Positions 8,281 through 56,588 of a DNA stretch of 64,000 bases are shown here, in pieces. The notes under the pieces were generated by a model, which was not told where the DNA came from, did not search any database, and saw only the letters and a program-made list of their open reading frames with translations. The stretch is taken from NCBI GenBank assembly GCA_018823745.1, contig JAHJHR010000003.1, positions 372,001 to 436,000 on the forward strand, written 5' to 3'. This DNA comes from Alphaproteobacteria bacterium (GTDB lineage: Bacteria; Pseudomonadota; Alphaproteobacteria; Oceanibaculales; Oceanibaculaceae). Each line of letters starts with the position of its first letter. Position 1 is the first letter of the stretch. The position numbers and the translations under genes were made by a program.

Positions 8281-8294
8281 GATTCTGTGAACTC

Positions 8295-9785: not shown

Positions 9786-9802
9786 GGATCTACCTTCAGG
9801 GT

Positions 9803-10809: not shown

Positions 10810-10813
<4 letters not shown>
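9803..10813 (-). CDS. Peptide ABC transporter ATPase, DppF/OppF type
   Basis: The second ATP-binding subunit of a dipeptide/oligopeptide importer. It shows Walker A GESGCGKST, signature FSGGQRQR, Walker B VIVADEPVSALD, and the C-terminal oligopeptide-ATPase extension with cysteines in CHFHTRCPYAIAEC. The start ATG at 10813 overlaps the upstream ATPase stop by four bases (ATGA), giving 336 residues. A longer frame of 30 extra residues lacks family similarity. It pairs with the adjacent DppD-like ATPase; the amidase follows directly. Confidence 0.93.
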
Positions 10814-11807
<994 letters not shown>

Positions 11808-11811
<4 letters not shown>

Positions 11812-13000: not shown

Positions 13001-14470
13001 TCAGAAAATCAATCCCGGGTTCGTCACCTCGTCCAGTGGCCAGATCGGGCGGTTGACCTTGGTGAAGGGGATCTTGGTGAAGGTCCGGCTTAAAGGCGCA
13101 TCCGATTCGATGTAGATGACCTTCTTGGCGATGGGGCCGAAGGCGGCCATGAAGTGGTTGGTGGATTTCACTATCAGGATTTTCTTCGCCAGCGGGTCGA
13201 TGCCCAGATTGGTGAAGAGTTCCAGCCCCAGCGCCTGGGTGCGGTTGTCGATCAGCACGATCTCGACACCGCCGATGCGGATGGCGGCACAATCGCCCAG
13301 CGGCACCTTGGTCGGGCCGAAGCTCTGCCAACAGTCGCGGGCGAGGCCGATGACCTCCACCGTCGCATCGATGGGCTGGCCAGAGGACGGGCCGATCTTG
13401 CCGCCGAAGCGCAGCGGGAAATGCGCGCCCAGCCCGGCATCGAAGCACAGCCGCACCGCGACCGGGTCCCAGATCGGGCCGACGGCGGCGTCCTGCGCAT
13501 CCTTCTCGATCAGCTGGCGCAGGATGGTGGTGTTGTCCGACGGCGCGCCGCCGCCGGCATTATCGGCGGGATCGGCCATGACCACCGGGGCATCGTTGAA
13601 CTCCATGCCGATCTTCACGCCCTCGGCCGGGGAGTGATATTCCGGCATGGTCTTGCCGCGCATCGAGACGAATTCCTCGCCCAGGCGGGTCGCCAGCGCA
13701 TCGGCCTTCGCCTTGTCGCCATCGGCCACGACAAGGATACGGCCGGTCAGCTCCGGCACATCCGCATAGGGGAAGCAATGCGCCGCCGAGACGGAGAGGA
13801 TGCCGTCCTTGCCCTCCAGCGCGAACATGCGGTCGACGAAGCCGCGCATCAGCGGCAGGGTCGTGGGGTAGCTGCTGATCTGCCGGCAGTCATAGACCGA
13901 CATGACCGGCTTCACCTCGCCCCGGATGGTGCGCAGCACGAGGTCGAGCAGGTCTTCCGCGCGGTCCTGCACGTCGGTATGCGGGAATTCCTTGTACAGA
14001 ATGACGATGTCGGCGTTGGAGACACGCTTCAGCGTCAGATGGCAATGCGGGTCCAGCTCCACGCCGATCACGCAATCCGGCCCGACAATGGCGCGGGCGC
14101 GCTCCAGAATGTCGCCTTCCACATCGTCATAGCCATAAGCGACCATCGCGCCATGCAGGCCGAACAGCACGCCATCCAGCGGCAGCGCGGCCTTCAGCTG
14201 GTCCAGAACCTCGTCACGCATGAATTCATAGGCGTCGCGATTCACCGTGCCGGCAGGGCTGGCAGCAAAGCAGCTGCCCTCGATCAGCGTATAGCCTTCC
14301 GCCTTGGCGCGCTGGCGGGCGACGAAAAGCGGTGCCGTGCACATGCGCGGCGCGTCGGTCGGATGCTCGCCGGGGCGCAGCCAGACGTTCTGGCGGAAGG
14401 CGTCCAGGCTGGTCGGCAAGGGCGAGAAGGTGTTGGTCTCGGTCGCAATGGTGGCGGAGAACAGACGCAT
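13001..14470 (-). CDS. M81-family (MlrC-like) metallopeptidase, copy 1
   Basis: A 489-residue zinc peptidase of family M81. The reference member MlrC (microcystinase C) cleaves the linearised microcystin peptide next to the Adda/iso-D-glutamate residues. Family features seen are TETNTFSP near the N-terminus, FGLHGAM, a ligand region ELDPHCHLT, and the glycine loop ADPADNAGGGAPSDNTT. The start ATG follows GAGGAG. It lies 10 bp downstream of a second, diverged M81 gene on the same strand. A role in opening unusual or D-residue peptides after import fits the neighbouring ABC genes. The ligand motif DPHCH differs from DLHAN in the neighbour. Confidence 0.88.
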   Translation of the reverse strand: MRLFSATIATETNTFSPLPTSLDAFRQNVWLRPGEHPTDAPRMCTAPLFVARQRAKAEGYTLIEGSCFAASPAGTVNRDAYEFMRDEVLDQLKAALPLDGVLFGLHGAMVAYGYDDVEGDILERARAIVGPDCVIGVELDPHCHLTLKRVSNADIVILYKEFPHTDVQDRAEDLLDLVLRTIRGEVKPVMSVYDCRQISSYPTTLPLMRGFVDRMFALEGKDGILSVSAAHCFPYADVPELTGRILVVADGDKAKADALATRLGEEFVSMRGKTMPEYHSPAEGVKIGMEFNDAPVVMADPADNAGGGAPSDNTTILRQLIEKDAQDAAVGPIWDPVAVRLCFDAGLGAHFPLRFGGKIGPSSGQPIDATVEVIGLARDCWQSFGPTKVPLGDCAAIRIGGVEIVLIDNRTQALGLELFTNLGIDPLAKKILIVKSTNHFMAAFGPIAKKVIYIESDAPLSRTFTKIPFTKVNRPIWPLDEVTNPGLIF

Positions 14471-14480
14471 CGGAAGCTCC

Positions 14481-16025
14481 TCAGGCTGAAGGCGGGGTCC
14501 AGCTGGTCTGGTCGTCCAGCGGATAGACCGGGCGCGGCAGACGGGTCCAGTTGAAGTTATGCAGCGCGGGAGAGGTCAGGCCGGGGCAATCGACCTCGAT
14601 GATCCGGTCCGGCGTGAAGAATTCGTCGAAGCCGGCGCGAAAATGCCCGCGGCTCTTCACCACGACACAGCGCGCCTGCGACAGGTCGACGCCAAGCAGC
14701 TCGATCTGCATCGGGTCCAGGCATTGCTGGCGGTTGGTGATCACCACCACCCGCACGCCGCCGACCTGCAACAGCGCCGCCGGCCCCAGATCGGCCGCCA
14801 GATCCTTATACATGCCGCGCCGCCCGATGAATGGGCCATCGGCCAGCGCCAGCACCTCGACCTCGGCCTGGAACACCTCGGAGAATTCGGTGCTCTCATC
14901 GCGGTTGAAGCGGGCGGTGAACCGCGCACCCTTGCCGCGATTATGGGCCTCGGCGGCCAGCGACGGGTCGTTGAACACGCCGATGACAGCGCCCTCGGCC
15001 CCGGCCTCGACCAGCGCGCGCAGTATATAGGTCGTGTTGCCACGCCCGCCGCCGCCCGGATTATCGGCGACATCGGCCAGCAGCACCGGCGTGCGCTCGC
15101 CCTTGCCGGCGGCAACCGCCTGGGCCACGGCATCCGCCAGCGGGGTCATCGCCTTGCGGAAGCGGTCGCGCATCGCCCAAGTCTTTTCCGCGATATCCAG
15201 CGCCACGGCGCGGGCGGCCGCCCGGTTGCCGTTGCGCGCCGTCACCACCGCCGTATAGCCATTCTTCGGCGTGTCGGAAAAGGCGAATCCGGCCATCACC
15301 GAGACATTCATGATGTCTCCGCCGACCTTTGTCTGACCATAGGCGATCATCTCGCCATAGGGATTGCCGGCGGCGGTCAGCAGCGCGATGGAGGGCGGCA
15401 CCAGCGGCAGCTTCACCATCTCGATGGCGGTCTCGGCGCCGGCCAGCAATTCGCGCATATGGCGGGCGGCCTCGACGCCGCGATCATAGATATCAACATG
15501 CGGATTCTCGCGGTAGCCGACAAAGACCGAGATCGTGTCGGTCATCCGGCGCGAGATATTGGCGTGCAGATCGAACACGGCGGCGACCGGCACGGCAGGG
15601 CCGACAATGCCGCGGATCATCGTCAGCATATCGCCATCGGGATCGTCGCTGCCGGTTGACAGCGCCGCGCCATGGGCGGCCACGAAGACACCGTCGAACG
15701 GCCCCTGCGCGCGCAGCCCGGCCTCGATTTCGGCCAGGAACCCGTCGAAGAATTTCTGATCGACCGGCCCGCCCGGCTGCGCCAGGGCGACGCGCAGCGG
15801 CACGGGGGTCCAGGGACCAGTGCGGTCCATCTCGGCGAAGAAGCCCGGCAGGTCCGGCAGGGTCATGAAATTTTCCGACCGCGCCTCCTGAAGAATGCGA
15901 TCGCCGCTGATATCCAGATCCTCGGCGAAATCGGCGGCGGTGGAAACCGGCGAGAAACGATTGCATTCGATGGCGAAGCCGAGGATCGCAATGCGCGGGC
16001 TTTCTGGTGGAGTCTTGAGGCTCAC
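14481..16025 (-). CDS. M81-family (MlrC-like) metallopeptidase, copy 2
   Basis: The second M81 peptidase, 514 residues from a GTG start at 16025. AGAGG lies nine bases upstream of that start, while an earlier ATG would add 23 residues without family similarity. It shows IECNRFSPVST, VAAHGAA, the ligand motif VFDLHANIS and ADVADNPGGGGRGNTTYI. Its sequence is clearly diverged from copy 1, so the pair is not a recent duplication and the two may cut different bonds. It is the first gene of the leftward block and faces the binding-protein gene across a 185-bp divergent control region. Confidence 0.88.
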   Translation of the reverse strand: MSLKTPPESPRIAILGFAIECNRFSPVSTAADFAEDLDISGDRILQEARSENFMTLPDLPGFFAEMDRTGPWTPVPLRVALAQPGGPVDQKFFDGFLAEIEAGLRAQGPFDGVFVAAHGAALSTGSDDPDGDMLTMIRGIVGPAVPVAAVFDLHANISRRMTDTISVFVGYRENPHVDIYDRGVEAARHMRELLAGAETAIEMVKLPLVPPSIALLTAAGNPYGEMIAYGQTKVGGDIMNVSVMAGFAFSDTPKNGYTAVVTARNGNRAAARAVALDIAEKTWAMRDRFRKAMTPLADAVAQAVAAGKGERTPVLLADVADNPGGGGRGNTTYILRALVEAGAEGAVIGVFNDPSLAAEAHNRGKGARFTARFNRDESTEFSEVFQAEVEVLALADGPFIGRRGMYKDLAADLGPAALLQVGGVRVVVITNRQQCLDPMQIELLGVDLSQARCVVVKSRGHFRAGFDEFFTPDRIIEVDCPGLTSPALHNFNWTRLPRPVYPLDDQTSWTPPSA

Positions 16026-44117: not shown

Positions 44118-45065
44118 TCAGCGCATCGCGCCAATGGTCCATTCGACCTTTGGCGCGTAGCGCCGGCCGAGGAACTGGTAGGTCCGGCGCAGCAGGCGGA
44201 TGCCGACCTCGTCGGCCGTCGGCTCGGCATCGTCCCAGACCTTCATGATTTCTTCCCAATCCATCGCCATCGCATGCAGATGGTCACGGCATTTGCGGAT
44301 GAAGGCGACGCTGTTCTCGTAATTCAGCACCAGGCTGCGGATCTCCGAGGTCTGGGCATCGACATCGTCGAAAAGCGCCTTGATCTCCGCATAGGGGTTG
44401 GAATACAGGGCACGGACCCGCGCAATCTCCTCGCCGACGACGCGGCTGGTAGCGAATAATTTGCCAAAGCGGTCCAGCTTGTCAGAGATCGTCTTCATCG
44501 AATGGAAACGGTCGCGCAGCGCCTCGATATAGGTCAGTTCGCGGACCAGAGATTCGACACGCACCTTGCCCTGCTCAAGGCCAACCGCTTCCGGCTCATT
44601 CGGAGATACTTCCCAGGACAGGCGCTTCATCGCCTTTTCCAGCTTCTCATTGGTCTGCGGGTCGTCCGCGATCTGCTCCAGCAGATCGGCATCAACCACG
44701 ACCTGCTCATCCCCCGACACCCAGGAGGCCAGCTGGACATGCAATCGCCAGCGCGCGCGGAACTCGTGGTGATCCTCGACCGACCAGGAGGCCGTGCCGT
44801 CGAGCAACTCTTTGGGAATGGAATCGCCGGGATGGATGCGGCGGACATAATCCAGCCCCCGGACCGCCATATCGATCAGCTTGCGGTCGGGATGATCCGC
44901 ATCAATGCCGAATTCGCGCATCAGCGCCGGCACGGCCACCACAGCGTCCAGCCCCTCGCACGGAATGCTGTAGACAGGCCCCTGCCCATCGTCGCCCTGC
45001 CGGAAATGCGCCCCGGGAATGGCAAAAATCCTGTGTTCGAGCAGAAAATGGGTGGGGGGTTCCAT
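44118..45065 (-). CDS. Conserved-looking protein of unknown function
   Basis: I do not recognise this 315-residue protein. It has no signal peptide or membrane helix and is rich in charged residues. The N-terminal part reads HFLLEHRIFAIPGAHFRQ and PALMREFGIDADHPDRK. The C-terminal 150 residues are helical with heptad-like spacing (VRELTYIEALRDRFHSM, DDVDAQTSEIRSLVLNYE), so a coiled-coil partner-binding region is likely. ATG at 45065 is preferred, because an in-frame ATG at 45110 would leave only 28 bp to the terminator of the chemoreceptor gene. Composition matches its neighbours, so there is no sign of recent transfer. A signalling or structural role is possible but unsupported. Confidence 0.7.
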   Translation of the reverse strand: MEPPTHFLLEHRIFAIPGAHFRQGDDGQGPVYSIPCEGLDAVVAVPALMREFGIDADHPDRKLIDMAVRGLDYVRRIHPGDSIPKELLDGTASWSVEDHHEFRARWRLHVQLASWVSGDEQVVVDADLLEQIADDPQTNEKLEKAMKRLSWEVSPNEPEAVGLEQGKVRVESLVRELTYIEALRDRFHSMKTISDKLDRFGKLFATSRVVGEEIARVRALYSNPYAEIKALFDDVDAQTSEIRSLVLNYENSVAFIRKCRDHLHAMAMDWEEIMKVWDDAEPTADEVGIRLLRRTYQFLGRRYAPKVEWTIGAMR

Positions 45066-45138
45066 TGGGATTGCACGCCTGACAGGCTGGTTAATTTGGG
45101 TTGCCCCCATTCTGGACCGAAGCGGTTAATTAATCATG

Positions 45139-45177
45139 AAAAAGCCCTCCCCGATCCAAATCAGGGAGGGCTTTTTT
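45139..45177 (-). terminator. Terminator after the chemoreceptor gene
   Basis: The stem GCCCTCCC/GGGAGGGC (45144-45151 and 45164-45171) is flanked by AAAAA on the left and TTTTTT on the right. It can stop transcription in either direction, and its leftward use follows the chemoreceptor stop at 45199. It also shows that the next gene leftward needs its own promoter. Confidence 0.88.
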
Positions 45178-45198
45178 CACGCGCCTGGGGTGTAGGGA

Positions 45199-46890
45199 TC
45201 AGGCCGCGCGCACGCCGTCGATGAAGCGTGACACGCTGCCCCGCAGCCCGGTCGATTGCCGTGCCAGTTCCTGCGAGGAGCTGAGCACCTGCACGGCGCC
45301 GGCCGAGCTGGTCTCCGCGGCATCGTTCACGCCGACAATGCTGCTCGACACCTCGCCGGTGCCGCGCGCTGCCTCGGTGGCGTTGCGGCTGATCTCCGAG
45401 GTGGCGGCCGTCTGCTGCTCAACGGCAGCCGCCACGGCGGAGGACAGGTCGTTCAGCTTGAAGATCACCTCGGCAATCGAGCTGATCGCGGTGACCGCGT
45501 CATCGATTGTCGCCTGCATGTTGTTGACCTGGGCCTGGATCTCACCGGTGGCGTTCGAGGTCTGGCTGGCCAGCGCCTTCACCTCGGAGGCAACGACTGC
45601 GAAGCCCTTGCCGGCCTCACCGGCACGGGCCGATTCGATAGTGGCATTCAGCGCCAGCAGATTGGTCTGGTCGGCGATGCCGCTGATCAGGCCGATCACC
45701 TCGGCAATCTTCTGCCCGGCCTCGGTCAGGCTCTTCACCCGGTTCTGGGCTTCCTGAGCGCTTTCGGCGGCCTGGTCGGCAACGCTGCGGGCCTCGCCCA
45801 TCTGGCGGGCGACTTCGCTGACGGTTGCGGTCAGCTCGTCAGTTGCGGAGGCGACGGTCTGCACATTGACCGAGGCTTCCTCGGCAGCGGCACTGACCGT
45901 GGCTGCCTGACGCGAAGTTTCCTCGGAGGAGGCGGACAGCGAATTCGCCGTTGCCTCCAGCTCGGTCGAGGCCGCGCTCATCACGGACAGGGCCTCGCCG
46001 ACCTCGGTCTCGAAGGTGGCAATCATCTGCGAGACGACTTCCGCGCGATCCAGTTTCGCCTGGTTCTCGCGATCCTGCTCGACCTGCAATGCCTGGCGTT
46101 CCAGGGCGTTGTCCTTGAAGATCACCATGGTGCGGGCAACATCGCCGATTTCGTCCCGGCGTTCCTGGCCGTGAATTTCGGTGCTCAGATCGCCATCCGC
46201 CAGCCGGCGCAGCGCCTGCACGGCCCGGGTCAGCGGCCCGACCACACCCTTGCTGGAGACGATCCAGCCCAGCAACCCGCCCAGCAGGATGCCACCAAGG
46301 GCAAAACCGGCGATCAGGGTCTGGACGGTCGATGCCAGCGCAGCAGTCTCGGCCGCGGTACGGTCGCCAAATTTGTCAGTGTAAATAACGAAGTCGCTCA
46401 TCTGCCGTCTCAGCGCATCGGCCGCTGACCGGCTTTTCTGCACCTGGGCCAGAATCTCCTCCTGGGCGCTGCTGACGTCCACGCCACGATGCTTAGCGGC
46501 AACCTTGAGCGTGGCAGCACTCAGTTCCGAATAGTGGCGAATGCCGCTTTCGATCTGGGTCAGCATCGCCGCCTGATCTGTGTCGGCGGTGAGCTTCAGC
46601 GCATCCAGCGCCGCGACCATTTCCTTCTGGGCATTCTGGACGGCCGGCAGCACCTCGTCATAATCGCCCGGATCGGCGGCCACGCGATATTCGCCGCGAT
46701 TCAGTTCGATCAGATTCCGGTTCATCCGCGCCGCCGTGCGGATTTCCGTGGCGGAGACATTGATCTTGTCTGCCGCGTCGCTGAGCTGCTTCAGCGCCAG
46801 CATGGATGCGATGGATATTCCCGCAGCAACCAGGGCCATGACGCCGAGAACCGCGAAAACTTTTGTGGATACCTTCAAGCGAGCAAGCAC
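45199..46890 (-). CDS. Methyl-accepting chemotaxis protein
   Basis: A 563-residue transmembrane chemoreceptor. Helix 1 lies at about 9-31, then a helical periplasmic sensor (about 32-188), helix 2 at about 190-212, HAMP (about 212-265) and a cytoplasmic coiled coil. The CheA/CheW-binding hairpin tip is IADQTNLLALNATIESARAGEAGKGFA in two adjoining parts. The sensor contains a four-helix-bundle-like segment without an obvious ligand motif. The start is GTG, with AAGGAG seven bases upstream. No che genes are adjacent; the terminator beyond it shows a single-gene unit. Its upstream region is strikingly AT-rich. Confidence 0.94.
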   Translation of the reverse strand: MLARLKVSTKVFAVLGVMALVAAGISIASMLALKQLSDAADKINVSATEIRTAARMNRNLIELNRGEYRVAADPGDYDEVLPAVQNAQKEMVAALDALKLTADTDQAAMLTQIESGIRHYSELSAATLKVAAKHRGVDVSSAQEEILAQVQKSRSAADALRRQMSDFVIYTDKFGDRTAAETAALASTVQTLIAGFALGGILLGGLLGWIVSSKGVVGPLTRAVQALRRLADGDLSTEIHGQERRDEIGDVARTMVIFKDNALERQALQVEQDRENQAKLDRAEVVSQMIATFETEVGEALSVMSAASTELEATANSLSASSEETSRQAATVSAAAEEASVNVQTVASATDELTATVSEVARQMGEARSVADQAAESAQEAQNRVKSLTEAGQKIAEVIGLISGIADQTNLLALNATIESARAGEAGKGFAVVASEVKALASQTSNATGEIQAQVNNMQATIDDAVTAISSIAEVIFKLNDLSSAVAAAVEQQTAATSEISRNATEAARGTGEVSSSIVGVNDAAETSSAGAVQVLSSSQELARQSTGLRGSVSRFIDGVRAA

Positions 46891-47110
46891 GACATTTCTC
46901 CTTATCTAGCAGAACTCGGCACCCCTATTCTTGACAATTCCGCACTGAACACAGGAAGAAATTATTCGCGCATTATTAATAAAGCATGAATCAAGTAAAA
47001 ATGAGAACGAACGTTACTTTTTTACTGAAAAAAGACTCTGGCTAATTGTGATAAGTAATTTTAGTATCGTTCGTGAACTTTATCTAACTTCAAAACTGGA
47101 ACACTCTCCT
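46891..47110. promoter_or_regulatory. AT-rich leader of the chemoreceptor gene
   Basis: These 220 bp are far richer in A and T than anything else in the window, especially 46960-47090. They hold an 8-bp inverted repeat AGTAAAAA/TTTTTACT (46994-47001, 47019-47026) and a wider one ACGAACG/CGTTCGT (47007-47013, 47068-47074). No coding frame is seen. The region probably carries the chemoreceptor promoter and may bind a regulator or nucleoid protein. I could not place a confident -10/-35 pair. Confidence 0.5.
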
Positions 47111-48037
47111 TTAAGTTGCGGCCTGGACGATCCCGACAAGGCCGATCAGCACCAGGCCCAGGCCGATGAATTCGCGCGTGGTCAGCTTCTCCCGGAAGAC
47201 GCGTTGCGAGACGATCAGGCTGAACAGCAACTCCGTCAGGCCCAGAGTGCGCACATTCGCCACCGGCTCGATGGCCATGGCGGTGAACCAGCCGATCGAG
47301 GCCAGCGCCCCCATCATCCCGGCCAGCAGGGAGATGCGCCAGGCCCGCATGACGGCGATCACGACCGGCCAGTCGCGCAACCCCAGATAGCCGAGCAGGA
47401 GAATGGTCTGGATCGATTGTGCCCAGACCAGCGCAGTCGCCGCCGCCAGCACCGGCATGTCCGGTGCGATGGCCAGCGCGGCACCACGATAGCCGACCGC
47501 CGAGAAGGCAAACATCGCGCCCGAGGCGATGCCAATCAATGCCGGGCGCGAGGTCAGCCCGGTCAGCAGGCTTTTCGCCGAAAGCTCGCCGGCCGGGGCC
47601 GACACCATGATGACGCCCATGGTCGCAATCAGGATGGCCAGGATGGCCGGCAGGGTCACCGGGTCGCCCAGCAGCACCGCGCCGAAAATGGCGACCTGGA
47701 TGATCTCGGTCTTGGAATAGGCGACGCCCAGGGCGAAATTCCGCTCCGCCATGGCGCGCAGTAGCAACGCCGTGGCGGCAATCTGCGCCACCGCCCCGCC
47801 GGCAACCCAGAAGACGAAAGCGAGGTTGGGCGCCGGGATCGATCCGCCGCTCCACAGCAGCACGATGGCCAGCCAGGCGATGGCGAAGGGCAGGCCATAG
47901 AGGAAGCGCACCAGCGTCGCCCCCATCGTCCCCAGACCGCCGACCAGGCTGCGCTGGGCGGCGTTGCGGATGGTCTGCGCGAAGGCAGCCCAGATGGTGA
48001 TGGGAATCCAGATCCAGGAAAGATCGGCGAGGGACAT
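47111..48037 (-). CDS. EamA/DMT-family permease
   Basis: An inner-membrane transporter of 308 residues with about ten hydrophobic helices in two repeats. It opens with LSWIWIPITIWAAFAQTIRN, and the second half starts near SRPALIGIASGAMFAFSAVGY. It is a member of the drug/metabolite superfamily but not closely like the copy at 1020-1952. Substrate unknown. It lies upstream of the chemoreceptor gene on the same strand across the AT-rich gap, and divergent from the RutE-like gene. Confidence 0.83.
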   Translation of the reverse strand: MSLADLSWIWIPITIWAAFAQTIRNAAQRSLVGGLGTMGATLVRFLYGLPFAIAWLAIVLLWSGGSIPAPNLAFVFWVAGGAVAQIAATALLLRAMAERNFALGVAYSKTEIIQVAIFGAVLLGDPVTLPAILAILIATMGVIMVSAPAGELSAKSLLTGLTSRPALIGIASGAMFAFSAVGYRGAALAIAPDMPVLAAATALVWAQSIQTILLLGYLGLRDWPVVIAVMRAWRISLLAGMMGALASIGWFTAMAIEPVANVRTLGLTELLFSLIVSQRVFREKLTTREFIGLGLVLIGLVGIVQAAT

Positions 48038-48213
48038 GCGCGGTATCCGGCTGACGAGGACAGAGCGTCACTCTAGAACCAGTTTGCGCCGGCCAGCCCT
48101 GCTTTCTCGTCAGCCCCGCCCTTTCTCGCAATTGCGAAAGCAAGGCTGGCGGGCGCGGGCAGTCGGGCCTAATCTGCGTTTCAATCCACACCGCTATCGC
48201 CAGGAACAACCCG

Positions 48214-48804
48214 ATGCGCAAAACCCTGCCGGAAGACGGCCTCGACCTGATCTTCCGCGACGCCCGCACCTATAACAGCTTCGCCCCCACCCCGGTCGAC
48301 CCCGCCCTGCTGCGGCGGGTCTACGATCTGGCGAAGATGGGGCCGACAGCCGCGAATTCGCAGCCTGCTCGCATGGTCTTCGTCACCTCGCCCGAGGCGA
48401 AGGAGAAGCTGAAGCCTGCACTGGCGCCCAACAATGTGGAAAAGACCCTGGCTGCCCCGGTCATCGTGATCTTCGCCCATGATCTGGAATTCTACGACAA
48501 CCTGCCCAAGACCTTCCCACATGTCGATGCCCGCGCCTGGTTCGTCGGCAAGCCGGCGCATATCGAGGCCACGGCCTTCCGCAACGGCACGCTGCAGGCC
48601 GCGTATTTCATGATCGCCGCCCGCGCGCTGGGGCTGGATTGTGGGCCGATGTCCGGCTTCGACAATGCCAAAGTGGACGAGGCCTTTTTCGCCGGCACCG
48701 CCTGGAAATCCAATTTCATCTGCAATCTGGGCCATGGCACGACCGACAAGCTGTTCGGCCGCCTGCCGCGGCTGGAGTTCGACGAAGCCTGCCGGATCGA
48801 CTAG
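48214..48804 (+). CDS. RutE/HadB-type nitroreductase (malonic semialdehyde reductase-like)
   Basis: An FMN-dependent oxidoreductase of 196 residues in the nitroreductase superfamily. [18 protein letters not shown] and [17 protein letters not shown] match the RutE group, as do the C-terminal [17 protein letters not shown] and FICNLGHG. RutE reduces malonic semialdehyde from uracil breakdown to 3-hydroxypropionate. No other rut genes are present here, so the physiological substrate may differ. ATG follows AGGAAC. The efflux-type transporter starts three bases after its stop, suggesting a two-gene operon. Confidence 0.88.
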
Positions 48805-48807
48805 ACC

Positions 48808-49995
48808 ATGCCCTCTGCCCTGCGCCTCGCGCTGATCCTGGGCGCGCTGACCGCCTTTGCGCCGATGTCGATTGACATGTACCTGCCCGCCTTCCCGGCG
48901 ATGCAGCAGGATTTCGCCACCAATGCCGGCCATGTCCAGCTGACCCTGTCGGTCTTCCTGCTGGGGCTGTCGCTCGGCCAGATCTTCTATGGCCCGCTGG
49001 CCGACCGCTACGGGCGAAAGCCGCCGCTTTATGTCGGCATCGCGCTGTACACGGTCGCCTCGGTCGCGATTGCCCTGTCGACGACCATCGACAGCCTGAT
49101 CCTGCTGCGCTTCGCCCAGGCGCTGGGCGGCTGCTCGGGCATGGTGATTGCCCGCGCCATGGTGCGTGATCTGTTCGACGAGCGCGGCTCGGCCAAGATG
49201 TACGCGCAATTGATGCTGGTCATGGGCGCGGCGCCGATCCTGGCGCCAATCCTGGGCGGCTATGTCCTGCTGGTCGCCAACTGGCACGCCATCTTCTGGA
49301 TTCTGGCGGTCTTCGGCGGTGCCTGTCTGACCGCCGTCGTCTTCGCCCTGCCGGAAAGCCTGCCGGCCGAGCGGCGCGGTGCCGGTGGCCTCGGCCCGGC
49401 ACTGGTCAATTACGGCTTCCTGCTGCGCAGCCCCGCCTTCCTGGCGTTCGCCATGACCGGGGGCTGCATCCAGGCCGGGATGTTCGCCTATATCACCGGG
49501 TCACCCTTCGTCTTCATCGACCTCTACAAGGTGCCGGCGGAGCAATATGGCTATCTGTTCGGGCTGAACGCTCTCGGCCTGATCGCCTCCTCGCAGATCA
49601 ACCACCGGCTGCTGTCGCGCTATAGCGGCCGGCAGATCCTGAACACCGCCGTGCCGGTGATCGCCACGGCGGCGCTGGTCCTGGCCGCCCTGGCCGCAAC
49701 CGGCACCGGCGGGCTGCTCGGCATTGTGGTGCCGCTGTTCTTCTGCATCGCCGGCATGGGCTTCGTCGGCCCGAATGCGCTGGCGGCAGCCATGGCCCCG
49801 CATGGCCGGATCGCCGGCAGTGCCTCCGCCCTGCTGGGGGTGCTGCAATTCGGCACCGGAGCCATGGCCGGCACGATTGTCGGGCTGCTGAATGACGGTA
49901 GTGCCCGGCCGATGGCCTTCACCATTGCCGGTCTTGCCTGCTGTGCTGCGGCGCTGCGCTTCTTCGTCCTGCCCCGCTTCAACCGGCCGGCCTGA
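48808..49995 (+). CDS. Bcr/CflA-family MFS multidrug exporter
   Basis: A major-facilitator exporter of 395 residues with about twelve helices. The Bcr/CflA signature at the N-terminus is LTAFAPMSIDMYLPAFPAM, followed by the MFS loop GPLADRYGRKP between helices 2 and 3 and QALGGCSGMVIARAMVRDLF. It would export drugs or small metabolites by proton antiport. Its tight linkage to the RutE-like reductase suggests a detoxification pair, but that is only inferred from spacing. Confidence 0.9.
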   Translation: MPSALRLALILGALTAFAPMSIDMYLPAFPAMQQDFATNAGHVQLTLSVFLLGLSLGQIFYGPLADRYGRKPPLYVGIALYTVASVAIALSTTIDSLILLRFAQALGGCSGMVIARAMVRDLFDERGSAKMYAQLMLVMGAAPILAPILGGYVLLVANWHAIFWILAVFGGACLTAVVFALPESLPAERRGAGGLGPALVNYGFLLRSPAFLAFAMTGGCIQAGMFAYITGSPFVFIDLYKVPAEQYGYLFGLNALGLIASSQINHRLLSRYSGRQILNTAVPVIATAALVLAALAATGTGGLLGIVVPLFFCIAGMGFVGPNALAAAMAPHGRIAGSASALLGVLQFGTGAMAGTIVGLLNDGSARPMAFTIAGLACCAAALRFFVLPRFNRPA

Positions 49996-50190
49996 CACCC
50001 TCCCACGACGGACACATTCCGATGACGAAAAACACACGCTGCAATCACGACAGCGTGACGATGCTTGATTTTACCAGTGCGCAGGATTCGGTCACTTTGG
50101 CTGTGTAATAAATAGCCGGGCAGGCCAATAACGCTTTCCAGAAGGCCGTTTATTACTTTTGCTTCAAATGTCCTTGTCTGGAGAAATGCG

Positions 50191-50493
50191 ATGAACCGCT
50201 CTGCAATGGCGCTTGGCGCCGCCCTCGTCACCGCCCTCGGCGTTTCCATGCTGAACAACGCCCAGGCCCAGTCCACCAATGTGGAAAAATGCTTCGGCGT
50301 CTCGCTGGCCGGCAAGAATGACTGCGCCGCCGGTCCCGGCACCACCTGCGCCGGCACCTCGAAGGTCGATTACCAGGGCAATGCCTGGAAGCTGGTGCCG
50401 AAAGGCTCCTGCGAGACCATGGTCATCAAGACCAGCGACGGCAAGGAAGTGAAGGGCAGCCTCAAGGCGCTGAACCGCAACCTGCCGAGCTAA
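50191..50493 (+). CDS. bufA1: Bufferin precursor, DUF2282 (BufA1-type RiPP)
   Basis: A 100-residue secreted peptide of the DUF2282 family. A signal peptide ends at about residue 26 (NNAQA-QS). The mature part has the four conserved cysteines 34, 45, 53 and 74 in [22 protein letters not shown] and VPKGSC. In characterised bufferins the central cysteines become thiooxazoles that bind copper, giving periplasmic metal buffering. ATG follows GGAGA by seven bases. The enzyme and partner genes follow directly. The 195-bp leader contains a CACGCT/AGCGTG inverted repeat (50035-50057); no sigma factor or anti-sigma gene is adjacent, unlike in many bufferin loci. Confidence 0.92.
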
Positions 50494-50569
50494 TCCTCTA
50501 CCGCAGCGCCGGCCGCCCCTCATCATGGTCAGCGGCCGGCAGCCTGCCCTTCCAGCCGAAAGCAATGGC

Positions 50570-51415
50570 ATGGTCTCGTCTTCGATCCCGCAGCGCGTCG
50601 GCGTTGGCCTGAAGCTGGAGCATTACCCGGCCATCGCCGGCAGCCTGCCGGATATCGGCTGGTTCGAGATTCATGCCGAGAATTTTATGGTCGCGGGTGG
50701 CCCCCGGCTGCGGCTGCTTGAGCATATCCGCCATCACTACCCGCTTTCACTGCATGGCATCGGTCTGTCGCTGGGCGGTGTGGAGCGCCCCGACCCGGCG
50801 CATCTGGCAGCACTGCGCCGATTGATCGACCGGTTCTCGCCCGGCCTCGTCTCCGAACATCTGGCCTGGAGCAGCGTCGGCGACACCTATTTCGCCGATC
50901 TGCTGCCGTTGCCACTGAATGCCGGCTCTCTGGCGCTGGTGGCCCGCAATATCGAGATCGCCCAGGACCATCTGAAATGCCGGATACTGATCGAGAACCC
51001 CTCGAATTATCTGGCCTTCACCGATGCCGAGTTGCCGGAGCAGGAATTCCTGGCCGGGCTGGTGCAGCGCACCGGCTGCGGCCTGCTGCTTGATGTGAAC
51101 AATCTGTATATCAGCCACCGGAATATCGGCCTCGACATCAATGTCTATCTGGCAGGGCTGCCGCAGGATGCCATCGGCGAAATCCATCTGGCCGGCCATG
51201 TTGTCGAGTCCCATGGCAGCGGCGATCTGCTGATCGATACTCATTCAACCGCCGTGACGGCGCCGGTGCGCGCAGTGTTCGAGCATGTCATCCAGCGCTT
51301 CGGGCCGCGCCCCACTCTGATTGAATGGGATAACGACCTGCCGGAATGGGATGTCCTCCTGGCCGAGGCCCGGATAGCCGGACAGGTGCTGGACCGGATT
51401 CCCGCCGATGCCTGA
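50570..51415 (+). CDS. bufB: DUF692 multinuclear non-heme iron enzyme (BufB)
   Basis: The maturase of the bufferin operon, a TIM-barrel MNIO enzyme that oxidises cysteines of the precursor. From ATG 50570 it is 281 residues and starts just before GVGLKLEHYP, as relatives do; an ATG at 50525 would add 15 residues and also lacks a clear ribosome site. Iron-binding positions are visible in FEIHAENFM, LHGIGLSLG, ENPSNYL, LLDVNNLYIS, EIHLAGH, DTHS and IEWDND. It overlaps the partner gene by eight bases and follows the precursor by under 80 bp. Confidence 0.93.
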   Translation: MVSSSIPQRVGVGLKLEHYPAIAGSLPDIGWFEIHAENFMVAGGPRLRLLEHIRHHYPLSLHGIGLSLGGVERPDPAHLAALRRLIDRFSPGLVSEHLAWSSVGDTYFADLLPLPLNAGSLALVARNIEIAQDHLKCRILIENPSNYLAFTDAELPEQEFLAGLVQRTGCGLLLDVNNLYISHRNIGLDINVYLAGLPQDAIGEIHLAGHVVESHGSGDLLIDTHSTAVTAPVRAVFEHVIQRFGPRPTLIEWDNDLPEWDVLLAEARIAGQVLDRIPADA

Positions 51416-52184
51416 TCTCAGCACCCTGCAACGCGATTTCGCCACTGCCCTGCAAACCCGGCAGACGCTGCCTGACGGGTATCTGCCGGCGGCGCACCAG
51501 ACGCGTTTCGCCATCTATCTGAACAATGTGCATCACGGGCTGGCGCAGAGCCTGGCGGCGGCCTATCCGGTGGTCAGGCGACTGGTGGGCGAGGAATTCT
51601 TTTTCGCGGCGGCCGGTCTCTATGTCACCGAAAACCTGCCGCGCAGCCGCTCGCTGACCCTGTATGGCGCAGATTTCCCACGCTTCCTGTATCGCTTCCC
51701 GCCAGCCCGCAGCCTGCCCTATCTGGCCGATATCGCCCGGCTCGAACGGGCCGCGCTGGAGGCCCTGCATGCGCCAGACGATCCCGTCGCCAGCCAGGCC
51801 GATCTGTTCGCGCTGGGCGATGCCCTCTCCGAAACACCTCTGGCACTGCACCCGGCCACAAGGCTGGTGGTCTCGCGCCATCCGGTGCTGGCAATCCATG
51901 ACGCCAATCAGGCGGCGGACACCGCCACCCGGGCGATAGAAGCGACACCGCAGGCGGTTCTGGTGTTCCGGCAGGATGACGGCCTGTGCCGGCAGGCGGT
52001 GGCACCCGCCGACGCGATCCTGCTGCGCCGGCTGAAGGCAGGATGGAGCCTGTCGCGTATTGCCGGAGACTGCCCCGCTGTCCATGCCGGCGGCGGTCTC
52101 GTCTCACGCTTTCAGCGCCTGTCTTTGCTGCCTGTCTTCGCCCGGCCGCCCCTGGATATCCACCCCCTGGAGACCCGACCATGA
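51408..52184 (+). CDS. bufC: DUF2063 precursor-recognition partner (BufC)
   Basis: The partner protein of the MNIO enzyme, 258 residues. The N-terminal DUF2063 domain (about 3-95) reads LQRDFATALQTR, then FAIYLNNVHHGLAQSLAAAYPVVRRLVG; the C-terminal part is a RiPP-recognition-like region. In bufferin systems it delivers the precursor to the DUF692 enzyme. Its ATG overlaps bufB by eight bases and its stop overlaps the DoxX gene by four, so all three are translationally coupled. No transmembrane segments are seen. Confidence 0.92.
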   Translation: MPDLSTLQRDFATALQTRQTLPDGYLPAAHQTRFAIYLNNVHHGLAQSLAAAYPVVRRLVGEEFFFAAAGLYVTENLPRSRSLTLYGADFPRFLYRFPPARSLPYLADIARLERAALEALHAPDDPVASQADLFALGDALSETPLALHPATRLVVSRHPVLAIHDANQAADTATRAIEATPQAVLVFRQDDGLCRQAVAPADAILLRRLKAGWSLSRIAGDCPAVHAGGGLVSRFQRLSLLPVFARPPLDIHPLETRP

Positions 52185-52639
52185 CGAACACTGTGATCGC
52201 CCGCCTGCACCATGCCCTGCTGCGCCTGCAAACAGTTCTGGAGCCACTGGCGCTGCTCGCCCTGCGCCTGCCGGTCGCGGTGGTGTTCTGGCGGTCTGCC
52301 CGCACCAAGGTGGAAGGCTGGAACATCTTCGCCCCGACCGATGGCGCCTTCTTCCTGTTCCAGCATGAATACGGCCTGCCCTTCCCGGTGCTGTCGACCT
52401 ATGCGGCGACGCTGGCGGAGCATGTCCTGCCGGTCCTGCTGGTGCTGGGCCTGGCCACCCGCCTGGGCGCGCTGGGGATGCTGGTCATGACGCTGGTGAT
52501 CCAGATCTTCGTCTATCCCGACGCCTGGCTGAGCGCCCATATGTTCTGGGCCACCATCCTGTTTGCCGTGCTGGCACTGGGGCCGGGAAAACTGTCGCTG
52601 GACCATCTGATTGCCCGGCGTCTCCCCGCGGCGCTCTAG
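52181..52639 (+). CDS. bufD: DoxX-family membrane protein of the bufferin operon
   Basis: A 152-residue inner-membrane protein with four helices, of the DoxX family that regularly ends bufferin operons. Hydrophobic segments include LALLALRLPVAVVFWRSA, HVLPVLLVLGLATRLGA and FWATILFAVLALG. A charged pair, TKVEGWNIF, follows the first helix. The ATG overlaps the bufC stop (ATGA). DoxX proteins are thought to handle redox or quinone-linked chemistry, but their role with bufferins is unresolved. The symbol is by position in the operon. Confidence 0.85.
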   Translation: MTNTVIARLHHALLRLQTVLEPLALLALRLPVAVVFWRSARTKVEGWNIFAPTDGAFFLFQHEYGLPFPVLSTYAATLAEHVLPVLLVLGLATRLGALGMLVMTLVIQIFVYPDAWLSAHMFWATILFAVLALGPGKLSLDHLIARRLPAAL

Positions 52640-52649
52640 CAATCCGAGG

Positions 52650-53414
52650 GTGCTGCCCTATCTAGATGGCGTGCAGACTGACGAACCCCCAAGAAAGCCG
52701 AGACGCGGCCGCGCCTTAGGCTGGCTGCTGGCGCTTGCCCTGCTGATCGGCGGGCCGGTGCTGGCGATCCATCAATCCTGGATTCAGATACCGGCCAACT
52801 GGGCGCCCTGGGGCGATGTCGAGCTGGAGGCCCCGCCTTCCTGGCTGGCGCGCTCGCAGATCAACAGCCTGGTCGCCGATCCGCCTTCCTGCCTGGCAGC
52901 ACTGGAGCGCACGGCACTGCGCTATACCCCGATGCCGGAAAAGCCGCTGGTCAAAGGCTGCGGCTATCTCAACGGCGTGCGCCTTGAACGCTCGCAGATC
53001 GCCTATAGCAGCGGCGTGGCGGCGAATTGCCCGGTGGTCGCGGCGCTGTACTGGTATGAGCGCGATCTGCAACAGGCGGCGCGGGAGCATCTGGGCACGG
53101 AGATCGCGCGGATCGAGCATCTCGGCATCTATGCGTGCCGCAACGTCTATGGCCGCAGCGCAGGACGGATGAGCCAGCACGCCACCGCCAATGCCATCGA
53201 TATCGGCGGCTTCCGCCTGAAGAATGGCGAGACAGTCTCGGTGCTGCGGGACTGGCCCAAGGACGGGCCGGCTGACAGCCCCGAATCGCGCTTCCTGAAA
53301 GCCGCCCGCGACAGTGCCTGCCGCTATTTCAACACCGTGTTGGGGCCGGAGTACAACACCGCCCATGCCGATCACTTCCATCTGGATCTCGGCAAGTCCC
53401 GCATCTGCCGTTAG
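52650..53414 (+). CDS. Extensin-like (M15-type fold) periplasmic protein
   Basis: An extensin-family protein of about 254 residues. One N-terminal membrane helix (GWLLALALLIGGPVLAI) precedes a periplasmic domain. The metal-peptidase-like ligands are SQHATANAIDIGGF and HADHFHLDLG, resembling zinc D,D-peptidases of the M15/VanY fold; two cysteine pairs may form disulfides. The start is uncertain: TTG 52611, GTG 52650 and GTG 52671 are in frame and none has an ideal ribosome site. It begins just after the DoxX stop and may be a fifth member of the bufferin operon. A role in cell-wall trimming is likely but unproven. Confidence 0.82.
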   Translation: MLPYLDGVQTDEPPRKPRRGRALGWLLALALLIGGPVLAIHQSWIQIPANWAPWGDVELEAPPSWLARSQINSLVADPPSCLAALERTALRYTPMPEKPLVKGCGYLNGVRLERSQIAYSSGVAANCPVVAALYWYERDLQQAAREHLGTEIARIEHLGIYACRNVYGRSAGRMSQHATANAIDIGGFRLKNGETVSVLRDWPKDGPADSPESRFLKAARDSACRYFNTVLGPEYNTAHADHFHLDLGKSRICR

Positions 53415-53424
53415 GAACGGGGCG

Positions 53425-53919
53425 CTAACGGAAGCGGCAGACCATCAGATACTCGTCATGATAGACGCCATCGACCAGAAGGCTGCGCGGCTCGGTGCCA
53501 TAGATCTCGAAGCCATGGCGCTGATAGAGCCGCAGGGCCGGCGGGTTATCGACCGCCACCGCGCAATGCAGCTGCACCACATGTGGCCGGGCGGCGGCGA
53601 TGACTGTCTCGATCAGCCGGTCGGCGAGACCACTGGCCCGATGCCCCGGCTGGACATAAACCCCGAACAGAATGCCGCGATGGCTTTCCTTCACCGCAGC
53701 AAAGGGCGCAAAACAGGCGGAGCCGACAAGCACGCCATCCAGACGGGCGGCGAAGATATGGCTGCGGCCGGTCATGCCGGCCTGCCATTCCTCCGGCGTC
53801 TGCCGGCTTTCCGTCTCCCAGTCGCCCCCGAAGGCGGCGGGGTGGCGTTGCAGGGCGTCCAGGCGCAGCGCCTTCCACTCCCGCCACTGCGCCGGGGTAA
53901 GCTGTTCAATCACCGGCAT
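53425..53919 (-). CDS. GNAT-family N-acetyltransferase coupled to the TOMM gene
   Basis: A 164-residue acetyl-CoA-dependent acyltransferase: LDGVLVGSACFAP, then GVYVQPGHRASGLADRLIETV, which holds the CoA loop, and VDNPPALRLYQRHGFEIYG. ATG at 53919 shares one base with the stop of the cyclodehydratase gene (TGATG), indicating coupled translation. In azole RiPP pathways such enzymes can acetylate the peptide product or protect the producer. Here it is the only tailoring enzyme seen. Its stop converges with the extensin-like gene. Confidence 0.85.
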   Translation of the reverse strand: MPVIEQLTPAQWREWKALRLDALQRHPAAFGGDWETESRQTPEEWQAGMTGRSHIFAARLDGVLVGSACFAPFAAVKESHRGILFGVYVQPGHRASGLADRLIETVIAAARPHVVQLHCAVAVDNPPALRLYQRHGFEIYGTEPRSLLVDGVYHDEYLMVCRFR

Positions 53920-56240
53920 CAGACGAAGAAGCTCAACGGGTTCAGCTCCGCCTCCTTCAGCGGCTTGTCCAGCAGGCCCTGGGCGACAGGGGCGGAGAAC
54001 AGGCGGGGCACGCCGCGACGGTTCCAGAAATGGCACAGGCCGGGAACGACGACCCGCACGCAATCCAGCGGCAGATTGCCCCGGTCGAAATTCAGCACGA
54101 CCACCTCATGTCCCATCTCGTCCAGCCGGTCGACACAGTGGCGCACGGCGGCGTCGATCGAGTCTATGCCCCGGATCGACAGGGCATTCGGATCGACCGG
54201 CGCGCCCTCACGGGCTTTCAGATAGGGGTGCTGCGCCAGAGTGGCGCTGTCGTTCCATTCCCGCGCGGTGGGGAATTCGTCCTTCTTGCCGGGGGCCAGC
54301 GGCACCTTCATGGCATCGTTAAAGAAGAACATCTGGTTCAGCTCGGTGATCGCCCGTGTCGCCGCGACCTTGCCGTCGATATGCGCGCCGAAGCCCATGG
54401 TCAGGCCAGTGCCGGTCTCCAGCTCGGCCGAAATCGCCACCATGACCGGGATGCCGATATCGCTGGTGATGTTCAGCACCTCCAGCGTGCGGCCGCTCTG
54501 CTGGATATAGTCGCGCATGGCGCTGATGAAGGCGCTGTCCAGATCATCCAGATCGACCGCCGGATAGCGCAACCGGTTGTACCACCACAGTGAGATCGAA
54601 TCGCGCTCGACGATCTCCAGCAGCCCCTGCAGAATTGCCTCCTCCAGCGTGCCACCAGAGGCGCAGCCATTGGAATCGCCCAGGCAGAAGACATGGTCGC
54701 CGGGCACGTCCTGGGAGCGGTAGTCGAAATAGCAGAACCGGGTCGGCAGCCAGCGCGGCTCGTCATGGGTGAGCGACCAGGCCGGCGACCAGTCTATGAG
54801 GTTCTCCTTCCGGAACGGCTCCGGGATCAGGTGCATCGCCTCCGTGCCCTTGTTCAGCTCGGCGCGGTTGGCGTATTGCGCAGCACTGAAGCCCAGGATC
54901 GAGTGCGGGTGGATCGCCGTCTTGCCCAGATCGGTCATGCGCGCCGGACGGCGGGCCTCGGTGCCGACCCAGCCGCTGGCATAGCGCTCCACCGCCTCGG
55001 CCAGGCAGCTGACGCGTGCCTGAGTCAGGGTGACGCCCTTGCCGCCGGCGGAACCCGGCTTGCCCAGCCGGCGATTGGCGCGCGGATCGACGCTTTCGCC
55101 ACTGGCCTGCGCGGCCGAGGTGACATACAGCCCCTTGCCGAAGACATGGTCATTGAGCTGCGAGACGATGCCGGTCAGCGGGCTGACCAGCGGGTTCAGC
55201 CGGGCCAGCGCCTGTTCGGCCGTCAGCGCACGCCAGCCGCCATCGCCATCACCGCCGGTGCTGACCGGCTGCAGGCGGATCGGCGTCGGCTGCAGGGGCG
55301 TCTTGGAGGTGCTGGCCGGCGCGCCGCAATGCGGGCAATCCGTGAAGCGCGGCGCGAGATGGGTGGTCGCCCCCCCGGTAATCGTATCGATGGTCAGCAG
55401 ATGATGATCGGTGCGGGCATCGCCGCTGCGGACATGCTGCAGGATTTCCGCCACCGCCATGCCGCGGGCCAGCGCCAGCGAGCCGGCGGTCCAGCCGCGT
55501 GCCGGGCGCAGCCCGCCGCTGGGCGCCTGCACCAGCGTATCACCCGGCCGGTGGCTGATCAGCCGCCGCGCCAGGCAATGATAACAGGGCCGCCGCCCAT
55601 CCGACCGGCCGGTCGGGTTTTCCGCCAGCGGCGTGCCCGCCCCCATGCGGGGACCGATCCAGGCGCTGTTGCCGCCCGGCTTGAAGGGCAGCCAGGACCA
55701 CCCGGCCCTGTCGGCCTGCACGGCGAAATCGACCAGCGAGGATTGCAGATAGTCATCGACCAGCACGATCAGCAGATCGGCCTGCGCCGGATCGGCCACG
55801 GCGAAGCCCGACCCGGCCAGCATGGAGAGCAGCGCGCCCGCGCCCTCGGCGCCCGTCACCGATCCCTGGCCCAGCGGCACCACACCGATGCGCTGGCCGG
55901 TCAGGGTTTCCGACACCGCCAGCGGCGTCTCGCCCTGTGCGCTCCAATAGGCCGCCAGATGACCGTCATGACGCGCCGGGACCGGGACGATATAGCCTTT
56001 GGCCTGCATGTCGGTCAGCATGCCGACAACCTCCGGCTCTGGCACCTTGCCCTTGAAGACAGCGACGATCTGCCCACCGGTCAGCGCGCCGGTCAGATGC
56101 GGCAGCAGATCGCGGTAGAACTGCCCGCGCAGCCGGAAGCTGCGCGACTCGGACAGCAGCAACAACCGCTCATCATCCTGCAGATGCACCGAGAAATGCG
56201 GCGCCAGGGCAAGATGATGGGTCAGAATTTCCGTCGACAT
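53919..56240 (-). CDS. Fused TOMM cyclodehydratase (E1-like plus YcaO)
   Basis: A bifunctional RiPP enzyme of 773 residues that would convert Cys/Ser/Thr of a precursor peptide into azolines with ATP. Residues 1-310 form the E1-like, leader-binding half with a zinc tetrad Cys219/Cys222 (RRPCYHC) and Cys302/Cys305 (DCPHC). Residues about 330-773 form the YcaO domain, with ATP/Mg motifs SCLAEAVER (Ser411, Glu415, Glu418) and EEAILQGLLEIVERDS (Glu534, Gln538, Glu542, Glu545). The C-terminus ends ELNPLSFFV rather than a clear PxPxP. ATG at 56240 follows AGGA; an earlier frame adds 30 unlike residues. No flavin dehydrogenase, exporter or precursor gene is visible nearby. Confidence 0.9.
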   Translation of the reverse strand: MSTEILTHHLALAPHFSVHLQDDERLLLLSESRSFRLRGQFYRDLLPHLTGALTGGQIVAVFKGKVPEPEVVGMLTDMQAKGYIVPVPARHDGHLAAYWSAQGETPLAVSETLTGQRIGVVPLGQGSVTGAEGAGALLSMLAGSGFAVADPAQADLLIVLVDDYLQSSLVDFAVQADRAGWSWLPFKPGGNSAWIGPRMGAGTPLAENPTGRSDGRRPCYHCLARRLISHRPGDTLVQAPSGGLRPARGWTAGSLALARGMAVAEILQHVRSGDARTDHHLLTIDTITGGATTHLAPRFTDCPHCGAPASTSKTPLQPTPIRLQPVSTGGDGDGGWRALTAEQALARLNPLVSPLTGIVSQLNDHVFGKGLYVTSAAQASGESVDPRANRRLGKPGSAGGKGVTLTQARVSCLAEAVERYASGWVGTEARRPARMTDLGKTAIHPHSILGFSAAQYANRAELNKGTEAMHLIPEPFRKENLIDWSPAWSLTHDEPRWLPTRFCYFDYRSQDVPGDHVFCLGDSNGCASGGTLEEAILQGLLEIVERDSISLWWYNRLRYPAVDLDDLDSAFISAMRDYIQQSGRTLEVLNITSDIGIPVMVAISAELETGTGLTMGFGAHIDGKVAATRAITELNQMFFFNDAMKVPLAPGKKDEFPTAREWNDSATLAQHPYLKAREGAPVDPNALSIRGIDSIDAAVRHCVDRLDEMGHEVVVLNFDRGNLPLDCVRVVVPGLCHFWNRRGVPRLFSAPVAQGLLDKPLKEAELNPLSFFV

Positions 56241-56496: not shown

Positions 56497-56588
56497 TGGC
56501 GGAGGGGATGAGATTCGAACTCACGATACGGTGTTACCCGTATAACGGTTTAGCAAACCGCCGCCTTCAGCCACTCGGCCACCCCTCC
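56497..56588 (-). tRNA. tRNA-Ser(GCT)
   Basis: A class II tRNA with long variable arm, 92 bases including an encoded CCA. The acceptor stem is GGAGGGG/CCCCTCC with discriminator G. The D-arm is TGGCCGAGTGG, the anticodon loop TTTGCTAAA gives GCT (serine codons AGC/AGT), and the T-arm contains GTTCGAATC. No repeated copy of its 3' end or integrase was seen. Confidence 0.97.

What the first reader, a model, noticed from the sequence alone, without database searches (positions are those of the whole stretch)
53919..56240. Orphan fused TOMM cyclodehydratase with only a GNAT as companion
The 773-residue protein keeps both halves of an azoline-forming enzyme: zinc tetrad Cys219/222 and 302/305, and the YcaO ATP motifs. 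Yet there is no visible precursor, dehydrogenase, protease or exporter. A GNAT is translated from its stop codon. Either the precursor is encoded elsewhere, or the enzyme modifies an unusual substrate. This could be a minimal, undescribed azol(in)e pathway with an acetylated product.
Basis: partly seen in the sequence, partly recalled or inferred. Interest (0 to 1): 0.75.

Follow-up and report, generated by a model that had tools for sequence, protein, structure and literature searches.

The report
Split ring-maker with 26-core precursor
A seemingly lone ring-forming peptide enzyme of an alphaproteobacterium likely acts on a giant repeat protein, encoded elsewhere in the same genome beside an oxidase gene and a predicted acetyltransferase gene, whose 26 repeat units are each predicted to yield a small modified peptide.

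Summary
The enzyme is real: minus strand 53919-56240, 773 aa, fused TOMM cyclodehydratase, 423 bits to LynD over residues 10-769; four zinc cysteines and the ATP residues are kept. It is not an orphan. It is the only YcaO found in the genome. The only SagB-type dehydrogenase found lies on another contig (C12), beside a GNAT-like gene and a divergent 633-aa ORF of 26 units, each a Pro/Cys-rich core plus a [VI]S-D-D-E-E-L-type element. Of four genomes of the genus, G000 and G001 have all four genes and G002 and G003 none; in G001 they sit together. Multi-core precursors also lie near YcaO, SagB and a tandem GNAT in Thalassospira, a Rhodospirillales MAG and Albimonas. A 14-residue core segment is identical in this genome and Thalassospira although 10 of 14 codons differ. 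Best reading: a split azole pathway with an iterated docking motif. Pairing and chemistry are inferred.

The parts
53919..56240 (-). Fused TOMM cyclodehydratase (RRE-position domain + E1-like/zinc part + YcaO), 773 aa
55989..56204 (-). N-terminal winged-helix domain (RRE position), residues 13-84, PF21084
   Evidence: RRE role from family knowledge
55575..55586 (-). First Cys pair, Cys219/Cys222
   Evidence: zinc role from family knowledge
55326..55337 (-). Second Cys pair, Cys302/Cys305
   Evidence: Cys305 is replaced in Thalassospira rows L016, L017 and in P0016
54036..55043 (-). YcaO ATP-dependent cyclodehydratase domain, residues 400-735
53425..53919 (-). Small GNAT, 164 aa, start overlaps the YcaO stop (TGATG); judged not a pathway member
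56497..56588 (-). tRNA-Ser (gct) upstream of the YcaO gene

Best explanation
The window's 773-residue fused cyclodehydratase is likely the ring-forming enzyme of a split pathway whose predicted substrate is a 633-residue repeat protein, built of 26 units and encoded on another contig of the same assembly beside the only SagB-type dehydrogenase gene found there and a GNAT-like gene. Predicted course: the N-terminal winged-helix domain docks on the acidic element [VI]-S-(D)-D-E-E-L of each unit, as LynD's domain docks on the L(X)4L strand of PatE; the YcaO domain turns core cysteines (two or more in 21 of 26 units) into thiazolines with ATP; SagB would oxidise them to thiazoles; an unidentified protease would cut between units; the GNAT-like protein would acetylate the freed N termini. 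Because the docking element comes with every core rather than once in a leader, one chain could supply about 20 different small azol(in)e peptides. Shown: the genes, the repeats, co-occurrence in the genus and linkage in relatives. Inferred: docking, ring formation, oxidation, cleavage, acetylation and the products.
For: One YcaO match in the genome and one SagB match (TIGR03605 118.8 bits, cut-off 78.4; ThcOx domain). Four genomes of the genus: YcaO, SagB, precursor and GNAT-like protein matched in G000 and G001, none in G002 and G003. In G001 precursor, SagB and GNAT run in one direction and YcaO converges on them. Multi-core precursors were read in 7 of 8 loci with a match to this GNAT: own, G001, L016, L017 (two precursors, each with its own GNAT), L018, L020, L021. 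The orthologues of the GNAT-like protein in G001, L016 and L018 pass the Pfam GNAT cut-off (44, 46, 43 bits; cut-off 20.7), with two stretches in L016 and L018. 26 docking-type elements in the 633-aa ORF against a mean of 0.41 and a maximum of 3 in 1000 shuffles; of 1074 control ORFs 10 have two and none more. SAPMPCTFSRISDD (14 aa, 10 codons differ) and VPPPCGFPCRIS (12 aa, 5 codons differ) are identical in this genome and Thalassospira: selection on the peptide, in this frame. Promoter-like site upstream and a 14-pair terminator-like hairpin right after the stop (consensus matches only). SagB on a different contig from YcaO recurs in the genomes of L013, L014 and L039.
Against: YcaO and precursor lie on different contigs, so the pairing rests on co-occurrence in only four genomes (completeness 91-98%). 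In the tree the window's YcaO groups with L013/L014 (93/90, below the 95 mark), whose loci carry an ABC exporter, SPFH and DUF697-like set and no multi-core precursor that I recognised, rather than with G001. A database search with the 633-aa ORF found no protein at E <= 0.001, and plasmids gave no match. Most own elements are V/I(X)5L; (X)4L is the rule in L018 and L039 and holds for 5 of 7 in G001. In L017 the strict element occurs once in each precursor, no more than in shuffles; its repeats read LSDSNL, and those of L020 and L021 are worded differently again, so a docking role cannot be read off in them. No protease or exporter for the pathway was found in the ORFs scanned around either locus. 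The own GNAT-like protein has weak Pfam hits only, one of them just over the cut-off (21.7 against 20.7), and none in its second half alone. The structure prediction failed.
Confidence: 0.72

Rival explanations
1. One reading: a minimal azole pathway of this enzyme and the co-translated small GNAT, acting on an unknown substrate.
For: TGATG overlap; no TOMM gene next to it in the scanned ORFs of the window.
Against: The small GNAT's 76% orthologue is in G002, where the enzyme gave no match, in a block collinear with window 44540-53896, and no close orthologue is in G001, which has the enzyme. SagB and a precursor exist in the genome.
Confidence: 0.04
2. The window's enzyme serves a second, unfound substrate like that of its nearest relatives (L013, L014: ABC exporter, SPFH, DUF697-like loci), and the C12 set works with another cyclodehydratase or alone.
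For: Tree position beside L013/L014; different contig.
Against: No second YcaO match in the genome. The SPFH match is only 35% here and 33-35% in all four genomes of the genus, with or without YcaO, so the L013/L014 set is not evident; the ABC and DUF697 genes were not searched in this genome.
Confidence: 0.14
3. The 633-aa repeat protein is an unmodified cysteine-rich metal-binding or structural protein, and its closeness to SagB is incidental.
For: 58 Cys, CxxC in 17 of 26 units; no database homologue.
Against: Repeat precursors lie near SagB and a GNAT in several genera and share the presence pattern of YcaO in the genus.
Confidence: 0.1

Closest known systems
Cyanobactin heterocyclases LynD / TruD and PatE-type precursors
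   Same: Fused enzyme alike over nearly the whole length (423 and 408 bits); several cores in one precursor; an L(X)4L docking strand in PatE (PMC12455567, passages). LSEEAL stands in the cyanobacterial repeat precursor of L053.
   Different: Cyanobactin precursors are reported with 1-4 cores (PMC4663559, passages); here 26 units, each with its own element; no PatA/PatG-type protease seen in the ORFs scanned; SagB separate; a GNAT; genes at two loci.
Goadsporin (GodD/E/H)
   Same: Azoles plus N-terminal acetylation by a GNAT after leader removal (PMC5303826, passages).
   Different: The repeat precursor, and a longer, two-part GNAT in relatives; acetylation here is a prediction.
Multi-core microviridins (AMdnA) and other multi-core RiPPs
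   Same: Several cores in one chain, called rare (PMC5934393, abstract and passages); microviridin J cores are acetylated after release (same paper, figure legend).
   Different: ATP-grasp chemistry, three cores in AMdnA.
Azole RiPP families of Cox, Doroghazi and Mitchell 2015 (PMC4603692, passages by term search only)
   Same: C-D fused cyclodehydratase with a SagB-type dehydrogenase; [quoted passage not shown]
   Different: No many-unit precursor with a GNAT in the 12 of 22 passages shown to me; 'acetyltransferase' does not occur in the main text; supplements not read.

Membership tests
TOMM fused cyclodehydratase (C-D fusion) | RRE/E1-like part plus YcaO in one chain over curated cut-offs | tested here: met
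   TIGR03882 76.7 (36.9) and TIGR03604 239.4 (219.25); LynD 423 bits over 10-769
TOMM fused cyclodehydratase (C-D fusion) | Zinc Cys tetrad | tested here: met
   Cys219/222/302/305, (metal itself not testable)
TOMM fused cyclodehydratase (C-D fusion) | ATP-binding Glu/Arg/Asn residues of YcaO conserved | tested here: met
   Glu415/418/534/542/545, Arg419/546, Asn524, Gln636 identical in 32 of 32 rows, (roles recalled)
TOMM fused cyclodehydratase (C-D fusion) | C-terminal PxPxP motif that I recall for azoline-forming YcaO proteins | tested here: inconclusive
   The motif is absent: the protein ends LNPLSFFV, and relatives mostly LNPxxFF. Whether it defines the fused family is recalled only, and the two rows that would serve as yardstick (L038, L053) were cut short
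TOMM / azole RiPP pathway | SagB-type dehydrogenase in the genome | tested here: met
   G000:C12:151720-153168
TOMM / azole RiPP pathway | Precursor with Cys/Ser/Thr-bearing core next to the genes | tested here: inconclusive
   633-aa, 58-Cys repeat ORF beside SagB but on another contig than YcaO
TOMM / azole RiPP pathway | ATP-dependent ring formation on the precursor | not testable with these tools
   needs an enzyme assay
Cyanobactins | PatA/PatG-type subtilisin proteases in the cluster | tested here: inconclusive
   No protease family in Pfam scans of 19 ORFs around the enzyme or of 9 ORFs around SagB; the whole genome was not searched for them
Bufferin (MNIO) pathway next door | Enzyme inherited together with the bufferin cluster | tested here: not met
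   G002 has the bufferin block collinear but no match to the YcaO

The most novel reading that the evidence does not exclude
A new azole-peptide family in Alphaproteobacteria in which the docking motif of the cyclodehydratase is repeated with every core, so that one 26-unit chain, the largest multi-core bacterial precursor I know of, is turned into a library of about 20 different acetylated thiazole peptides by enzymes encoded at two separate loci; some of these peptides (APMPCTFSRIS, VPPPCGFPCRIS) are kept unchanged between genera.
Probability: 0.47. Interest if true: 0.88.

Novelty: new variant of a known kind. Interest (0 to 1): 0.73.

Why it matters
Multi-core precursors are called rare in RiPP biosynthesis, and cyanobactin precursors hold 1-4 cores (PMC5934393, PMC4663559, passages). 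A 26-unit chain with a docking-type element per core gives a direct test of how one cyclodehydratase handles many sites, and a possible scaffold for peptide libraries. The split layout also means that mining by gene neighbourhood would call the enzyme an orphan and miss the precursor; this may hold for other 'orphan' cyclodehydratases, since three relatives here also keep SagB away from YcaO.

Tried and rejected
Small GNAT as partner: rejected. Bufferin MNIO cluster as co-worker: rejected, it is collinear in G002 without the enzyme. Nitroreductase at 48214-48804 as the dehydrogenase: 196 aa, not SagB; the third hit, on C12, proved to be SagB. SPFH set of L013/L014 in the own genus: only a 33-35% match in all four genomes. 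Genome-collection scan with the single protein found no relative; with the alignment it gave 80 loci. Homologue search with the 633-aa ORF: none; plasmid search: none. My pattern searches for multi-core ORFs missed L017, L020 and L021, which were found by reading frames, so 'none recognised' in the other loci is weak. SagB loci of the L013, L014 and L039 genomes: SagB with AurF-like diiron oxygenase, no multi-core ORF recognised. Protein-structure search with the GNAT-like protein: no GNAT relative, one weak unrelated match. Structure prediction of the enzyme failed.

Full report
What is there. The gene lies at 53919-56240 on the minus strand and encodes 773 aa. It passes the curated cut-offs for TIGR03604 and TIGR03882 and matches the solved cyanobactin-type heterocyclases LynD (423 bits), TruD (408) and MusD (374) over nearly its whole length. 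Cys219, 222, 302 and 305 and the YcaO Glu/Arg/Asn columns are present. Of 22 columns checked in a 32-row alignment, 20 are identical in all rows; column 522 is Asn in two rows (L030, P0050), and the fourth cysteine (305) is Gln or His in three (L016, L017, P0016). The C terminus is LNPLSFFV rather than the PxPxP that I recall for azoline-forming YcaO proteins.

Not an orphan. The own assembly (G000, 3.97 Mb, 19 contigs, 93% complete, 0.4% contamination) has one YcaO match and three nitroreductase-family matches. One of these, on contig C12, is a 483-aa protein over the SagB cut-off (118.8 against 78.4 bits) with a ThcOx match. It is followed by a 308-aa GNAT-like gene. The Pfam GNAT hits of this protein are weak, 21.7 bits against a cut-off of 20.7 at best, but its 60% orthologue in G001 and the relatives in L016 and L018 pass clearly, the last two with two stretches; I therefore call it a tandem GNAT. 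Divergent from SagB stands an ORF of 633 codons, G000:C12:153365-155266 with its stop, with a promoter-like site upstream and a 14-pair terminator-like hairpin directly after the stop. GC of the window, of this locus and of the ORF is alike (0.65 each). Other ORFs scanned around SagB are of general kinds: MarR regulator, BNR-repeat protein, ThiS-like, short-chain dehydrogenase, E1 dehydrogenase/transketolase, sigma factor.

Anatomy of the 633-aa ORF. It holds 26 units, 20 of them 22-24 residues long, and 58 Cys; 26 of 26 units have a Cys, 21 two or more, 22 contain Pro-Cys. Each unit is marked by an element such as VSDDEEL or ISDDEEL: 26 found, against a mean of 0.41 and a maximum of 3 in 1000 shuffles. 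By my reading of the list there are 20 different cores, GPKPCGQCWV being the commonest (5 copies). In the repeat families D1-D7 and D9 all spacings are multiples of three (the last copy of D8 lies outside the ORF). No Pfam or NCBIfam family matches the protein and no database homologue was found.

Co-occurrence. The held set has four genomes of the genus. YcaO, SagB, GNAT-like protein and precursor are matched in G000 and G001 and not in G002 or G003, which are 91 and 98% complete. In G001 a 195-aa precursor with 7 elements, SagB and GNAT follow each other, and YcaO converges on them. G001 groups with a protein named Oceanibaculum nanhaiense, so the genus is probably Oceanibaculum (inference).

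Relatives. Of 20 close loci (L013-L029, L039, L046, L093), SagB is in the fetched stretch of 17; in the genomes of the other three it lies elsewhere, beside an AurF-like diiron oxygenase. Two kinds of neighbourhood appear. In one, SagB goes with the GNAT and multi-core precursors: own, G001, Thalassospira L016 and L017, L018, Albimonas L020 and L021; an eighth locus with a weak match to the GNAT (L145, 26-29%) showed no precursor that I recognised. In the other, YcaO goes with a cyclic-peptide-type ABC exporter (TIGR01194, 298 against 286 bits in L015), an SPFH protein, a small membrane protein and a DUF697-like protein (26.1 bits, below the cut-off of 27.7); Albimonas has both. L039, of the second kind, also has a short repeat precursor with VSDEAL elements. 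Nine of nine more distant loci (32-34%, L124-L132) showed none of these partners apart from weak ABC matches in four. In the class, 13 of 385 genomes sampled had the enzyme at E <= 1e-150.

Selection on the cores. SAPMPCTFSRISDD is identical in this genome and Thalassospira L016 with 10 of 14 codons different; VPPPCGFPCRIS with 5 of 12; VPPPCGFPCR is shared with L018 with 6 of 10. This supports strand and frame and says that the peptide, not the DNA, is kept. Within the own array the picture is mixed: among seven CGQCWVS units there are 73 synonymous and 105 nonsynonymous codon differences, so parts of the units vary freely.

The small GNAT. G002 is collinear with window 44540-53896, covering the bufferin block, the extensin-like gene and the GNAT; the DNA match ends 23 bases inside the GNAT's start codon at 53919, and nothing of the window beyond it matches the fetched G002 stretch. 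So the enzyme most likely came in between this GNAT and the tRNA-Ser side (inference); the overlap is no evidence of joint function.

Mechanism. LynD binds PatE by a strand with L(X)4L, and both leucines matter (PMC12455567, passages). LSEEAL, which I recall as the PatE wording, is in the cyanobacterial repeat precursor of L053. The elements ISDEDL, VSDEEL, VTDEEL and VSDEAL of G001, L018 and L039 have the same spacing with a hydrophobic first residue; the own elements mostly have one residue more, and L017, L020 and L021 are worded differently. I infer that each element is a docking site. Cyclodehydration of Cys, oxidation by SagB and acetylation by the GNAT follow from the families; goadsporin is the precedent for the last (PMC5303826, passages). 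Protease and exporter are unknown.

Literature. Ten searches of an open-access library listed no paper that, by title and start of abstract, describes this precursor type; the two papers with both 'Oceanibaculum' and a word beginning with 'RiPP' are on other subjects by title. Subscription journals and supplements were not seen, so novelty is provisional.

Noticed in passing
window 50191-52639 (+): A bufferin-type cluster: DUF2282 precursor, MNIO maturase over the BufB cut-off (353 against 310 bits), HvfC-like partner (below cut-off), DoxX protein; collinear in G002.
   Followed up: partly
L093 (G001:C9) 9622-12017: G001's YcaO is split over two frames near residue 650; a near relative named O. 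nanhaiense (P0013) is listed at 767 aa. Sequencing error or real damage not settled.
   Followed up: no
L016, L017, P0016: Thalassospira-type enzymes have lost the fourth cysteine (Cys305 to Gln or His) while keeping the ATP residues.
   Followed up: no
L013, L014, L015, L039: A second arrangement: YcaO with cyclic-peptide-type ABC exporter, SPFH, small membrane protein and DUF697-like protein; SagB and an AurF-like diiron oxygenase lie a few kilobases away in L015 and elsewhere in the genome in the others; precursors mostly unrecognised.
   Followed up: partly
L154 (Thalassospira marina plasmid, 4812-15595): A LanM lanthipeptide synthetase, a 'thiocillin family RiPP', a TOMM enzyme, a P450 and an S53 peptidase side by side.
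   Followed up: no
L094 6943-8765 (+): A BNR-repeat (beta-propeller-like) ORF and a ThiS-like small ORF convergent with the GNAT-like gene; relation unknown.
   Followed up: no
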